Assembly: GCA_029263455.1 (NCBI GenBank)
Contig: JAJCXM010000030.1
Coordinates: 1 to 54,858, forward strand
Reading direction: 5' to 3'
Origin: Holophagae bacterium
GTDB lineage: Bacteria > Acidobacteriota > Holophagae > Acanthopleuribacterales > Acanthopleuribacteraceae
DNA length: 54,858 nucleotides
The first letter of the stretch is position 1, and every line of letters begins with the position of its first letter. Made by a program: the position numbers and the translations under genes. The notes under the pieces are model-generated. The model did no database searches. It worked only from the letters and a program-made list of their open reading frames with translations, and had not been told where the DNA came from. Shown piece by piece: positions 49,729 to 54,858 of the stretch.

Positions 49729-50022
49729 TTAAGCGCGGGACGCCCAATAGCCAGGTCGACGCGCGTGGTGAGCAATTGCGAATATGACGATGCCCTCGTT
49801 ATCAGGGCGATAAATGACAGAGAAGGGGAATCTATTGACGATGAGGCGCATTGTGTTTCTTGTGGCACGTGTACCGGCATTAGGGAAAGCCAAAGCTCTG
49901 ACTGCAGCTTCTTCTATTTCATGTGCAAATGCATAGCCAAGACCTGGCTCTTTTGTATTGTAATAGACCACTTCCTTAAGGAATTCACGTCGTGCAGGCG
50001 CGACGAATCTTACTTTCTTCAC
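49729..50022 (-). CDS. RelE/ParE-superfamily toxin
   Basis: The 97 residues begin MKKVRFVAPARREFLKEVVYYN and contain RLIVNRFPFSVIYRPDNEGIVIFAIAHHARRPGYWASR, the standard C-terminal pattern of ParE-like toxins that occur with addiction-module antitoxins of the family encoded directly upstream. Members inhibit gyrase or cleave mRNA; which applies here cannot be told. The start overlaps the antitoxin stop by four bases (ATGA). It lies on the minus strand between repeat copies. Confidence 0.9.
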   Translation of the reverse strand: MKKVRFVAPARREFLKEVVYYNTKEPGLGYAFAHEIEEAAVRALAFPNAGTRATRNTMRLIVNRFPFSVIYRPDNEGIVIFAIAHHARRPGYWASRA

Positions 50023-50246
50023 TTGTCGATTCGTCTTGCCTCTGCAAACACATCCTCGGCCGGGTATACATGAAGCTCGCCACGATCATGGGCAAGTACA
50101 CGTTCTTCTATTTCTTGAGACCAGGCGTCTTTGATCATTGCAAGTGGGTCACTCAACGATTCAAGCATGACTTCGACTAATTTTGCACGTTCTTCCGGTT
50201 CAAGACTTAATGCCTGTTCTTTTATTTGATTAAGGGAATCGGTCAC
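50019..50246 (-). CDS. Addiction-module antitoxin (TIGR02574-like)
   Basis: The start at GTG 50246 has GGAGG six bases upstream. The 75-residue helical protein (SLNQIKEQALSLEPEERAKLVEVMLESLSD ... WSQEIEERVLAHDRGELHVYPAEDVFAEARR) matches the widespread short antitoxin family, with its LxxEERxxL core and a tail binding the ParE-type toxin. It precedes the toxin with a 4-base overlap. A longer frame to 50303 has no start support. Confidence 0.9.
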   Translation of the reverse strand: MTDSLNQIKEQALSLEPEERAKLVEVMLESLSDPLAMIKDAWSQEIEERVLAHDRGELHVYPAEDVFAEARRIDK

Positions 50247-50451
50247 AAGAATCCTCCGTAGCTTGTAGTCTACACTTGATTTCTGTTTATGTGGACTGGT
50301 CATTGTACAAAGCTAGGCGGGCGATCTTTTGAGAGGATCTGGATCGGATCGGACATGATCTAATGTTACGGAACTATATATATTGGATATACCTCGGCCT
50401 TGAAACCAGGGCTATGATCTCCCACCTCTGCGAATGCGATCTTCTATTGTT

Positions 50452-50697
50452 CCGCCGGATATGGTGTCAACAGGAGCCTAAGCGACTGAGGCAGCGCTTT
50501 CGCCGAAGAGGTGGCGAGAGATGAAGGTTCCCGGTCTGTGAATCGAGCGCAGCGAGGTTCGCAGGCGATAAAATAGGGGAGTTGCGCGTGACTTCAAAGG
50601 TTACGGCCCGAGCACCTCACTGCGTTCGATGCCCGGGATCAGCTCTTCAGTGTGGCAAACACTTCGTCCAAAGCGGTACCTCAGTCGCTCGGAAATT
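50452..50697 (+). repeat. A-type palindromic element, copy between TA pairs
   Basis: It opens with a degraded left arm (GGATATGGTGTCAACAGGAG), has the core (CTGTGAATCGAGCGCAGCGA near 50535) and closes with the inverted right arm (AAAGCGGTACCTCAGTCGCTCGG, ending near 50692). The arms are inverted copies of each other across about 150 bases. It separates the ParE pair from the DUF4160/DUF2442 pair. Confidence 0.7.
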
Positions 50698-50967
50698 CAA
50701 ATGGCCCTGAAAGGGCCAAACATGACAGCCCAGGGCCTCGCCCTGGGTTAGGAATCCAAAGAAATCGTTAGCCCTGAAGGGGCGCGACAGTTATGAACTC
50801 TTCTGAAATGATAATCCCCCGATGACGATCAATCCCGTTTTGATTGAAGCCTGGAATTGTGGAACACCCTTTCGGGGCACAGAAAGACGGGCGTTTCGTT
50901 TCCCAAGGCAGTGCCCTGGCAGATGAGAATCCGTGTTTTGGTATACTGATTGGGCTGGATAAATTCA
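50698..50967. repeat. Short hairpin repeats before DUF4160
   Basis: It contains GGCCCT-GAAA-GGGCC (about 50702-50716), CCCAGGGC-CTC-GCCCTGGG (about 50731-50749) and AGCCCTGAAGGGGC. These small palindromes are abundant in hypervariable regions of several environmental phyla. A related one (GGCCCTGGCGGGGCC) is at about 48424-48438. No gene is supported. Confidence 0.5.
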
Positions 50968-51234
50968 ATGCCAACAATCTCAATGTTTTATGGAATTATT
51001 GTTCGGATGTATTACGCGCCGAAAGAGCATCCTCCACCACATTTTTACGTCTACTACGGCGAGCATAAGGCAACCGTCGATATCCACACTTGCGAAGTGA
51101 TTCAAGGAGATCTTCCAAGGAAACAGACTAAGCTTGTGCTGGCGTGGGCAGAACTTCATCAGGAAGAATTAGTAGCAGATTGGGAGCTGGTCATGAATGG
51201 CGAAGAACCGTTCAAAATCCAGCCGTTGCAGTGA
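50968..51234 (+). CDS. DUF4160 protein (toxin-antitoxin-like pair, first gene)
   Basis: The 88-residue product starts MPTISMFYGIIVRMYY and continues EHPPPHFYVYYGEHKATVDIHTCEVIQGDLPRKQTKLVLAWAELHQEELVADWELVMNGEEPFKI, a near-perfect DUF4160 pattern. DUF4160 genes usually precede DUF2442 genes and the pair is regarded as toxin-antitoxin-like. The biochemical activity is not established. The DUF2442 gene follows after 11 bp. The pair lies between A-type repeats. Confidence 0.9.
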   Translation: MPTISMFYGIIVRMYYAPKEHPPPHFYVYYGEHKATVDIHTCEVIQGDLPRKQTKLVLAWAELHQEELVADWELVMNGEEPFKIQPLQ

Positions 51235-51245
51235 GAGGTGAAACG

Positions 51246-51512
51246 GTGATTCCATCAGTAAAAAACGTCACACCAATGGCGGACTATTTGCTCTCGATTG
51301 ATTTTGACAACGGAGAGAGTGGGATTTTGGATATGAAACCCTATCTGGATTTTGGCGTTTTCCAGAAGCTCAGGGACCGCAATGCCTTCAATCGAGTTCG
51401 TGTCTCATTCGACACCATAGAGTGGGATTCAGGTGTCGATCTGGACCCTGAATTTGTTTACAACAAGAGTCAACGTTCAGTCGCGCGGATTACACCAGCT
51501 ACGCAGACTTGA
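51246..51512 (+). CDS. DUF2442 protein (partner of DUF4160)
   Basis: GTG 51246, with AGAGGTG upstream, starts a product of 88 residues: VIPSVKNVTPMADYLLSIDFDNGESGILDMKPYLDFGVFQKLRD, then FNRVRVSFDTIEWDSGVDLDPEFVYNKS. This is the usual DUF2442 structure, in which the small domain may bind DNA or the DUF4160 partner. The typical ending YDKS appears as YNKS, followed by a short extension. Both members of the pair appear intact. Confidence 0.88.
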   Translation: MIPSVKNVTPMADYLLSIDFDNGESGILDMKPYLDFGVFQKLRDRNAFNRVRVSFDTIEWDSGVDLDPEFVYNKSQRSVARITPATQT

Positions 51513-52133: not shown

Positions 52134-52703
52134 CTAGCTTTCAAATGGATTGACCGGTGTGTAATCGTCAGACACACGCAGTTCGCTTGTTTTGAAGCTC
52201 CGAACCGCCTCCTTGAATGATGCCTTCGCATGTGTATCAAACCATTTTGCGGAGCACCAAGGATACTGTCGGGCGTCATGGACGAGTCCGTGATGAACTG
52301 GATTATCCATGACATAGTTAAGGCGCGAAAAGTAACTGCGTTTGAACGAAAGCTGTTTGTCCCAATAGTTATGCCAAACTTTGCGACCTTTAACGCCATC
52401 CATCCGGTTAACAAATCGACTTGAATCGGTATGCAGACGTGTGATCCATTCGCGCAGCGATTTACCGCCACTTGACGGGCTATCGGCAATCAGATGGTAG
52501 TGATTAGAGAACAGCGACCATCCTTGTAACATCCAGCCATAAGAATCTCCTATCTCGAACATCTTGTCTTGAAGAAAATCAAGCGCATCGGGTTTCGTGA
52601 AAAAGTGGTTGTGTTGATAACAAGCCGCTGTAACGAAGTAGGTGCCTGCATCTTCGAAAGAGTGCCGAGGAGCGTGCGGCCAATAGTTGTTGCTGGGGTC
52701 CAT
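52134..52703 (-). CDS. REP-associated tyrosine transposase (RAYT, Y1 family)
   Basis: The 189-residue product begins MDPSNNYWPHAPRHSFEDAGTYFVTAACY, a typical opening. Catalytic parts: the HUH-type SNHYHLIADSP (about residue 68), KVWHNYWDKQL, and SYFSRLNYVMDNPVHHGLV with the Tyr nucleophile (in RLNY). These enzymes bind imperfect hairpins and move REP-type repeats. Flanks on both sides are palindromic A elements with identical leader and trailer, so they are its likely substrates. All motifs are intact. The start at ATG 52703 is favoured over TTG 52709. Confidence 0.9.
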   Translation of the reverse strand: MDPSNNYWPHAPRHSFEDAGTYFVTAACYQHNHFFTKPDALDFLQDKMFEIGDSYGWMLQGWSLFSNHYHLIADSPSSGGKSLREWITRLHTDSSRFVNRMDGVKGRKVWHNYWDKQLSFKRSYFSRLNYVMDNPVHHGLVHDARQYPWCSAKWFDTHAKASFKEAVRSFKTSELRVSDDYTPVNPFES

Positions 52704-52725
52704 GACCAAATCTTACGTGTGAAAA

Positions 52726-53382: not shown

Positions 53383-53802
53383 TTATTTGAATTCATCCTT
53401 TTTGAGCAAAGCTTCAGCCAACTCCCAAATATTCTGAGGGCGGTCGAGGTCATACTCTTCTTTCGTTCCCAGAAATGCATACCCATCGATATTCTCGACT
53501 TCGTTAATACGTGAGAGGTCATTGTTTAAGAAAAGAGCAGGGGGCTCATCAGGAGTGGTATCCAAGGTACAGCCACAACAAAAAGTTGCTGGTTGGTCGT
53601 CAATGCATTTTTTTTTGCTGCAATAGTTCAAACATTCGACAATATCGTCAATTGCGAGATATGGGTGACAATGCAATAAATGAAAGACCGTCTCAAATCG
53701 GTACGTAAGCAAATTGGCGATATTTGCGCACGTCAATCGAGTTCCCTCAATTCTTGGGTTACCTGCACAGGTTCCCTCAGTGCAGACTATCTTTCTTGTC
53801 AA
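53383..53802 (-). CDS. DUF433 protein with Cys-rich extension; probable immunity to the RHS-PIN toxin
   Basis: Residues 4-63 match the DUF433 antitoxin fold (CTEGTCAGNPRIEGTRLTCANIANLL ... LHCHPYLAIDDIVECLNYC; the canonical core is GxPxIxGTRLxV and YPxLxxxDIxxxLxY). DUF433 proteins commonly partner with DUF5615 PIN-like toxins. Here the C-terminal 75 residues add a Cys cluster (CSKKKC, CCGC) and an acidic region. The gene follows the RHS gene by 17 bp, as immunity genes do, and the RHS protein ends in a DUF5615-like domain. It starts at TTG 53802, since an in-frame TGA lies just upstream and the DUF433 core needs the full N terminus. Confidence 0.8.
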   Translation of the reverse strand: MTRKIVCTEGTCAGNPRIEGTRLTCANIANLLTYRFETVFHLLHCHPYLAIDDIVECLNYCSKKKCIDDQPATFCCGCTLDTTPDEPPALFLNNDLSRINEVENIDGYAFLGTKEEYDLDRPQNIWELAEALLKKDEFK

Positions 53803-53819
53803 TTTTCATCCAACCTATT

Positions 53820-54858
53820 TTACAACTTTTTTATTAACTTTACCGTGATCCCCGACCTTGGAATTTGTTTCATTCTTGTCCATATTTGGGGATTCAATCT
53901 TGCAGCCTCTAGGCTGTTTAACGTGTTGATCAATGCAGCAAGCTTTTGTTCATGAGTTTCCAGAACGCCAGATACACGGATTACTTTGCTCATACCTTTG
54001 AAATGTTTGTGGTTTTGCGTTACGAAGATACCATTATTGCGTTCGATCATACTTCGAATGATTGGATCGTCTGTAGACAATGGAACTTTAACGACATCGT
54101 GTCCCTGTTCCCTAATATACTTGTTCATCCAAAAATTATTCTCATCAACATATACCTTTAGAGGAGGAGGAGCTTCAGTAAAGATTATATTATTTACGTC
54201 GGAACCTAAGAATAGGGCGTCCATAATTGGCAGCCCACCTAATCCTAATGATAATTCCGCTGACATCGAAAACCCAAATAATGCGGCCGATAACTTCGCC
54301 GAAACTAACATCGCTTCTGTCAAATCTTGAGGGCGATGTTCAAGGGTGTTAACAACCTGTTGCCCTTTGCTAGGACCAATATTGAGCGCAATTTCATGAT
54401 GAGCTATCTGGTTCTCGACTGCGTAGTAAACATAAACAGGAGCATAGGTCGTTAGGCTTAGTTCATGACGGAGTTGATACAATTCCATCAATTGCATTCT
54501 TGCGGTTTCTTCGTCGATTTGAGATGAGGTGCCTGTAGAGTCGAAATACTCCACAGGACTGTTCCCCACATACGAGTACGGATTCACAAACTCCCTAGCC
54601 GGATCGACCTCTAGGAATCTTCCGATTTCGGGCATGTAGAAGCGGGCGCCGTAGTACATCAGGCCCAGCGCTTCTTCGCGTTCCTGGCCCGTGTAGCCGT
54701 GGGGATCAGCCTCTCCACCGTTACCCGAGTTGATCAGGTCCCGCCAGGTGTTGCCATAGGCATCGTTGTCCATGGCGGCGGTTAGGACCGCACTCTCGTA
54801 GTTGGACTTGTCCAAGGCCAGCACCATCTTGGTGGAACCCAAGTGGTCCTTGACGTAT
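53820..54858 (-). CDS. RHS-family polymorphic toxin (C-terminal part) with DUF5615/PIN-like toxin tip
   Basis: The gene is cut by the right edge: only the C-terminal part is present. Numbered from the first Met seen (54842), residues 46-104 form the RHS core end (DPHGYTGQEREEALGLMYYGARFYMPEIGRFLEVDP, split as GYTGQEREEALGLMYYGARF and PEIGRFLEVDP, then NPYSYVGNSPVEYFDSTG). A linker with a hydrophobic, glycine-rich segment (about 178-205) follows. The tip (about 228-290) reads LKVYVDENNFWMNKYIREQGHDVVKV, then IFVTQNHKHF, matching DUF5615 (lkilvDEn...GHDVv..., ilvTxDxdF). The Asp residues of the last motif are His/Asn here. The tip is probably a nuclease. Confidence 0.8.
   Translation of the reverse strand, partial: YVKDHLGSTKMVLALDKSNYESAVLTAAMDNDAYGNTWRDLINSGNGGEADPHGYTGQEREEALGLMYYGARFYMPEIGRFLEVDPAREFVNPYSYVGNSPVEYFDSTGTSSQIDEETARMQLMELYQLRHELSLTTYAPVYVYYAVENQIAHHEIALNIGPSKGQQVVNTLEHRPQDLTEAMLVSAKLSAALFGFSMSAELSLGLGGLPIMDALFLGSDVNNIIFTEAPPPLKVYVDENNFWMNKYIREQGHDVVKVPLSTDDPIIRSMIERNNGIFVTQNHKHFKGMSKVIRVSGVLETHEQKLAALINTLNSLEAARLNPQIWTRMKQIPRSGITVKLIKKL

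What the first reader, a model, noticed from the sequence alone, without database searches (positions are those of the whole stretch)
53383..54858. RHS toxin whose tip is a DUF5615/PIN-like domain, with a DUF433 protein as its immunity
Seen: RHS core, then residues about 228-290 with VDEN...GHDVVKV...VTQNHKHF, and 17 bp downstream a DUF433 gene. Established: DUF5615 (PIN-like) and DUF433 are a known intracellular toxin-antitoxin couple. RHS proteins are delivered polymorphic toxins with a downstream immunity gene. Inference: the TA pair has been recruited into a delivered-toxin system, with DUF433 serving as immunity. The Cys-rich extension on DUF433 and the His/Asn changes in the last catalytic motif add novelty.
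Basis: partly seen in the sequence, partly recalled or inferred. Interest (0 to 1): 0.85.

Follow-up and report, generated by a model that had tools for sequence, protein, structure and literature searches.

The report
RHS tip borrowed from toxin-antitoxin pair
The end of a delivered-type bacterial toxin resembles a nuclease that cells normally keep inside as half of a toxin-antitoxin pair, and the gene right behind it encodes a relative of that nuclease's usual antidote, which suggests an internal poison-antidote pair was turned into a weapon with its immunity gene.

Summary
On the minus strand, 53820-54857 is the C-terminal 345 residues of an RHS protein (TIGR03696, 68.8 bits), cut by the contig end; 17 bp downstream is a 139-residue DUF433 protein (PF04255, 35.4 bits, cut-off 23.6).

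The last 113 residues fail Pfam's DUF5615 cut-off (12.5 against 23.8 bits) but are clearly related to one DUF5615 branch with T-x-N-[RK]-x-[HD]-F. By profile comparison the tip scores 36.7; the best of 600 shuffles 19.2, the best of 58 other RHS tips 18.1. That branch includes Synechocystis sll7033, whose antitoxin sll7034 is a DUF433 protein. The 'His/Asn changes' are thus inherited, not new.

Free DUF5615-DUF433 pairs put DUF433 upstream; here it is downstream, as immunity genes are. A second DUF433 copy without an RHS gene is under purifying selection (dN/dS about 0.22). The genome has only these two DUF433 genes, no other DUF5615, and a T6SS sheath gene.

Best reading: RHS toxin with a DUF5615-like nuclease tip and DUF433 immunity. 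It is a single case so far; no function is shown. A relative has another PIN-like RHS tip (DUF1308), so PIN-like tips are not unique to this locus.

The parts
53820..54857 (-). C-terminal 345 residues of an RHS protein, 5' end lost at the contig edge, TAA stop at 53820-53822
   Evidence: open frame; TIGR03696 68.8 bits; window is the whole contig C30
54531..54764 (-). RHS-associated core domain
   Evidence: TIGR03696, curated cut-off 32.5 bits passed
54162..54530 (-). linker between core and tip, about 123 residues, no family match
   Evidence: no Pfam match; G+C falls from about 0.6 in the core to 0.37-0.49
53823..54161 (-). C-terminal tip, 113 residues, DUF5615-like (PIN-like)
   Evidence: hhalign to the branch profile p=5e-6, score 36.7 against a shuffle maximum of 19.2 and a maximum of 18.1 among 58 other RHS tips; predicted b-a-b-a-b-b-a-b order at modest confidence
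53994..54161 (-). first half of the tip, which carries the detectable similarity: VDEN, GHDVV, DD, TQNHKHF
   Evidence: alignments
53803..53819 (-). 17-bp gap between the RHS stop and the DUF433 start; TTGGATGAAAA just before the start is shared with the second copy
53383..53802 (-). DUF433 protein, 139 residues, TTG start; presumed immunity gene
   Evidence: PF04255 35.4 bits over the 23.6 cut-off; second copy at G000:C34:62773-63189, dN 0.144, dS 0.66
53620..53790 (-). DUF433 domain
53386..53619 (-). C-terminal extension of the DUF433 protein with conserved cysteines (C66, C75, C76, C78; C57 and C61 lie at the end of the domain); no family match
   Evidence: not seen outside this genome

Best explanation
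A polymorphic RHS toxin whose C-terminal tip is a divergent DUF5615-type (PIN-like) nuclease, followed by its immunity gene, a DUF433 protein. Both parts descend from an intracellular type II toxin-antitoxin pair (PIN-COG2442). Inferred working: the RHS protein carries the tip out of the cell, possibly through the T6SS the genome encodes; in a neighbour the tip cleaves RNA and stops growth; the producer and its kin are protected because the DUF433 protein binds and blocks the tip, as DUF433 antitoxins do in VapBC10-type pairs. Shown here: RHS core, relation of the tip to DUF5615, DUF433 domain, gene order, purifying selection on the DUF433 gene, a T6SS sheath gene. Inferred: nuclease activity, delivery, binding and immunity.
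For: RHS core over cut-off. Tip related to the N-x-x-[HD]-F branch of DUF5615: score 36.7 against at most 19.2 in 600 shuffles and 18.1 in 58 other RHS tips. Its neighbour is DUF433, the antitoxin family of exactly that branch. Only two DUF433 genes in 6.25 Mb and no DUF5615 gene; among 5358 open frames the RHS gene ranks first for the branch profile and its direct neighbour ranks first for DUF433. DUF433 lies downstream, the immunity order, whereas it lies upstream in 17 of 30 free DUF5615 loci. dN/dS about 0.22 between the two copies. RHS tips of related genomes carry known polymorphic-toxin domains. Genome has a T6SS sheath gene. Precedent: VapC10 arrests E. coli growth and is neutralised by its DUF433 partner (PMC3834315); sll7033/sll7034 is among the five pSYSA pairs reported to behave so (PMC4963859).
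Against: Tip is under the Pfam threshold. No second RHS-DUF5615-DUF433 locus found. Second half of the tip has no sequence match, and fold searches gave only generic alpha/beta folds. RHS 5' end missing. The second DUF433 copy has no recognised toxin beside it.
Confidence: 0.68

Rival explanations
1. The tip is some other small alpha/beta toxin with its own mechanism; its likeness to DUF5615 is chance or very remote, and the DUF433 protein next to it is an immunity protein or regulator without TA ancestry shared with the tip.
For: Pfam thresholds not reached; single-sequence model looked thioredoxin-like, the better model generic Rossmann-like; full-protein HMMER E-values among real open frames are only 0.4-1.1.
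Against: Clear separation from shuffles and from other RHS tips; conserved D-E-N, G-H-D-V, D and T-x-N-x-x-F positions; its neighbour is the DUF5615 partner family although the genome has only two such genes.
Confidence: 0.17
2. Decaying or silent RHS fragment: an orphan tip cassette (or an RHS gene broken beyond the contig edge) that is no longer delivered, with the DUF433 gene kept for another reason, such as regulation or protection against relatives' toxins.
For: The gene runs off the contig; the genome also carries short RHS core frames (170-384 residues) elsewhere; a transposase-like gene and repeats lie next door.
Against: 345 residues open without a stop and an intact core; DUF433 copies under purifying selection.
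Confidence: 0.13
3. An ordinary intracellular DUF5615-DUF433 toxin-antitoxin pair that happens to be fused in frame to an RHS remnant, with DUF433 acting as a classical operon-regulating antitoxin.
For: Family pair is the same as in TA systems.
Against: Gene order is reversed, genes do not overlap, and the tip has no start of its own at the domain boundary: the RHS frame runs through.
Confidence: 0.04

Closest known systems
sll7033/sll7034 on Synechocystis plasmid pSYSA (PIN-COG2442 type II toxin-antitoxin pair; DUF5615 + DUF433)
   Same: Same branch of DUF5615 (T-x-N-R-K-x-F) and a DUF433 partner
   Different: Free-standing genes, antitoxin first and overlapping the toxin; DUF433 domain follows an N-terminal segment and there is no Cys-rich extension
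vapBC10 (ssr2962/slr1767) of Synechocystis PCC 6803
   Same: PIN toxin neutralised by a COG2442/DUF433 protein through a 1:1 complex (PMC3834315)
   Different: Intracellular, antitoxin first, no RHS; experimentally tested, which this locus is not
RHS polymorphic toxins with downstream immunity genes (Zhang et al. 2012)
   Same: RHS core, low-G+C variable tip, small gene directly downstream
   Different: Zhang et al. found no PIN domain among the tips (PMC3482391); N-terminal part not available here
RHS protein with DUF1308 tip and DUF6210 neighbour in related genome G399 (L132)
   Same: RHS tip of another family with weak PIN similarity, followed by a small gene
   Different: Different toxin family (DUF1308, E=8e-24) and different neighbour family (DUF6210, E=1e-28)

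Membership tests
DUF5615 (PF18480) | score over Pfam's curated cut-off of 23.8 bits | tested here: not met
   12.5 bits, E=0.14 with the first 64 residues; not listed for the whole protein
DUF5615 (PF18480) | significant profile-profile relation to undoubted members | tested here: met
   hhalign p=1.8e-5 to 32 members, 5e-6 to the N-x-x-[HD]-F branch; controls
DUF5615 (PF18480) | conserved positions D-E-N in strand 1, G-H-D-V in strand 2, D before helix 2, T-x-[DN]-x-x-F after strand 3 | tested here: met
   alignment A2, invariant Y5 E8 N9 R19 G22 H23 D24 V25 D40 T56 N58 F62
DUF5615 (PF18480) | PIN-like three-dimensional fold | tested here: inconclusive
   element order fits at pLDDT 66, but fold searches are unspecific and no solved DUF5615 was found by sequence
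DUF433 (PF04255) | score over the curated cut-off of 23.6 bits over the whole 56-position model | tested here: met
   35.4 bits, profile 1-56; second copy 39.9 bits
PIN-COG2442 type II toxin-antitoxin system | antitoxin gene directly upstream of, often overlapping, a free-standing toxin gene | tested here: not met
   here DUF433 is downstream and the toxin-like domain is the end of an RHS frame; upstream in 17 of 30 free loci of the phylum
PIN-COG2442 type II toxin-antitoxin system | toxicity relieved by the partner | not testable with these tools
   needs expression in a laboratory strain
RHS polymorphic toxin | RHS-associated core followed by a variable C-terminal domain | tested here: met
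   TIGR03696 68.8 bits, then a tip not shared with the other 58 RHS tips scanned
RHS polymorphic toxin | small gene immediately downstream in the immunity position | tested here: met
   DUF433 gene, 17 bp behind the stop
RHS polymorphic toxin | N-terminal trafficking or delivery domain | not testable with these tools
   contig ends inside the gene
RHS polymorphic toxin | downstream protein neutralises the tip | not testable with these tools
   needs experiment

The most novel reading that the evidence does not exclude
A whole intracellular PIN-COG2442 toxin-antitoxin pair was converted into a delivered toxin with its antitoxin as immunity protein, with the gene order reversed and the antitoxin enlarged by a Cys-rich extension that helps it block the tip: a metal-dependent nuclease and its antidote crossing together from TA systems to polymorphic toxins.
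Probability: 0.5. Interest if true: 0.75.

Novelty: new variant of a known kind. Interest (0 to 1): 0.58.

Why it matters
The main survey of polymorphic toxins (Zhang et al. 2012, PMC3482391) stated that PIN nucleases were not used in them and that no metal-dependent nuclease was shared with toxin-antitoxin systems. A DUF5615-like RHS tip followed by a DUF433 gene would be a counter-example in which the antidote family came along too. It would show that a TA antitoxin can become an immunity protein, and it can be tested with two small genes in a laboratory strain.

Tried and rejected
Further RHS-DUF5615-DUF433 cases were sought with the tip in 396 genomes of the phylum, in species genomes with exact-peptide seeds (close relatives only), in viral contigs, plasmids and phages, with the DUF433 protein, in 107 RHS loci of this genome and its relatives, and in the whole bacterial family with a mixed profile: none. 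The second species-genome scan chose only two seed peptides near the start of the DUF433 protein, so it says little about distant relatives. Seven DUF5615 matches with long open frames were read; none is an RHS fusion, and most of these frames look like read-through in G+C-rich DNA. Fold searches with both models listed no PIN domain, only generic alpha/beta folds, which does not exclude one. The sequence at the contig end was not found in the other RHS loci held at that point, so the RHS gene was not extended. PADLOC gave nothing. The idea that N-x-x-H-F is a new catalytic variant was rejected, because free DUF5615 proteins carry it. A larger alignment for structure prediction was not possible: viral contigs gave only two kinds of permitted relatives.

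Full report
What is there. The window is a complete 54,858-base contig (C30) of a 6.25-Mb genome assembly. Its right end is the 3' part of an RHS gene on the minus strand: 345 residues, open to the contig edge, with an RHS-associated core at residues 32-109 (TIGR03696, 68.8 bits). After a 17-bp gap comes a 139-residue gene with a TTG start, whose residues 5-61 are a DUF433 domain (PF04255, 35.4 bits against a cut-off of 23.6). G+C drops from about 0.6 in the core to 0.37-0.40 in the tip, as is common for exchanged RHS tips (established knowledge).

Is the tip really DUF5615-like? By Pfam alone, no: Mut7-C at E=0.03-0.04 and DUF5615 at E=0.14, both under threshold. I therefore collected DUF5615 genes from 149 genomes of the same phylum, built a profile from 32 sequences and compared the tip with it: 9.8 bits by HMMER (one of 20,000 composition shuffles higher) and hhalign p=1.8e-5. 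Three of the four closest members (L038, L049, L050) have T-x-N-[RK]-x-H-F where most members have T-x-D-x-D-F, as the tip does (T-Q-N-H-K-H-F); blastp to L049 gives E=1.3e-4 over 99 columns. The same branch occurs on cyanobacterial plasmids, annotated as 'DUF5615 family PIN-like protein' beside DUF433 genes, including Synechocystis sll7033/sll7034; these score E about 1e-22 against Pfam DUF5615. Against a profile of this branch the tip scores 36.7 by hhalign (p=5e-6). The best of 600 shuffled tips scores 19.2 and the best of 58 other real RHS tips 18.1. Against the general DUF5615 profile the tip again ranks first (31.5; shuffle maximum 21.0); second is an RHS tip from a related genome (L132, 26.2) that Pfam assigns to DUF1308, with a weak PIN match. 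The first 57 or so residues carry the similarity; the second half has no clear sequence match.

Structure. A single-sequence AlphaFold model was poor (pLDDT 55). With three relatives covering only the first half, the model improved to pLDDT 66 and pTM 0.58, with the order strand-helix-strand-helix-strand-strand-helix-strand; since the relatives were DUF5615 proteins this is not independent evidence. Fold searches listed only generic alpha/beta folds, and no solved DUF5615 was found by sequence. I count structure as inconclusive.

The neighbour. This genome has two DUF433 genes at the threshold used and no DUF5615 gene. One of the two lies 17 bp behind the one RHS tip with DUF5615 likeness. Among 5358 open frames from this genome and from relatives' RHS loci, the RHS gene ranks first for the branch profile and its direct neighbour ranks first for DUF433, although the full-protein E-value of the RHS gene in that test (0.43) is not significant alone. 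In 17 of 30 free DUF5615 loci of the phylum a DUF433 gene was recognised directly upstream of the toxin; it appeared downstream only where a second DUF5615 copy or fragment lay further upstream. Plasmid and viral relatives have the same antitoxin-first order. Here DUF433 is downstream, the order of an immunity gene. The second DUF433 copy (contig C34) is 71-73% identical over its full length, including all cysteines of the extension. Homology between the two loci begins 22 bp before the start codon and does not include the tip; dN is 0.144 and dS 0.66. No RHS gene or recognised toxin lies beside the C34 copy, which fits an orphan immunity gene but also another role. The extended form was not seen outside this genome in the searches made.

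How it probably works. PIN-COG2442 pairs were predicted as toxin-antitoxin systems by Makarova et al. 2009 (PMC2701414). VapC10 arrests E. coli growth and is neutralised by its DUF433 partner in a 1:1 complex (PMC3834315). sll7033/sll7034 carries the citation of the study in which five pSYSA pairs showed growth inhibition and attenuation (PMC4963859; the primary paper is not held). Carried over to the RHS protein this gives a delivered nuclease tip, growth arrest in the target, and protection of the producer by DUF433 binding. The genome carries a T6SS sheath gene, a possible route. Delivery, toxicity and neutralisation are not shown here.

Known or new. Zhang et al. [quoted passage not shown] A title and abstract search for later papers joining PIN domains with RHS or polymorphic toxins found no report of one, though the hits were not all read and the library is incomplete. 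DUF1308-tipped RHS proteins in related genomes (2 of 59 tips, best E 6e-28) suggest that PIN-like tips are not unique to this locus. What is particular here is that the antidote family of the toxin-antitoxin pair is present too. It is a single case in an incomplete gene, so I rate it a new variant of a known kind.

Noticed in passing
L132 (G399:C41:94000-96521), minus strand 1860-2522: RHS protein of a related genome whose tip is DUF1308 (E=8e-24, weak PIN match) with a DUF6210 gene directly downstream (E=1e-28): a second PIN-like RHS tip with a different presumed immunity family.
   Followed up: partly
window 49729-50303, minus strand: ParE-type toxin (30.5 bits) with an 'addiction module component' antitoxin (42.7 bits) directly upstream: an ordinary toxin-antitoxin pair close to the RHS locus.
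   Followed up: partly
window 50950-51512, plus strand: Overlapping DUF4160 and DUF2442 genes, 84.5 and 55.3 bits.
   Followed up: no
window 52134-52709, minus strand; repeats at 50673, 51624, 51815, 52027, 52798, 52989: IS200-like (Y1) transposase-type gene flanked by copies of a short sequence, GCGGTACCTCAGTCGC, six in the last 4.2 kb against none expected; a similar stretch lies downstream of the C34 DUF433 copy. Looks like a REP-associated transposase with its repeats.
   Followed up: partly
L054:5464-5799 (contig C34): Open frame of about 100 codons that overlaps the start of the second DUF433 gene; no Pfam match.
   Followed up: no
genomes G397, G399, G400: Genomes of 10-12 Mb in the same family hold 46-50 RHS cores each, with tips from many toxin families such as HINT, Tox-REase, HNH and deaminases.
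   Followed up: partly
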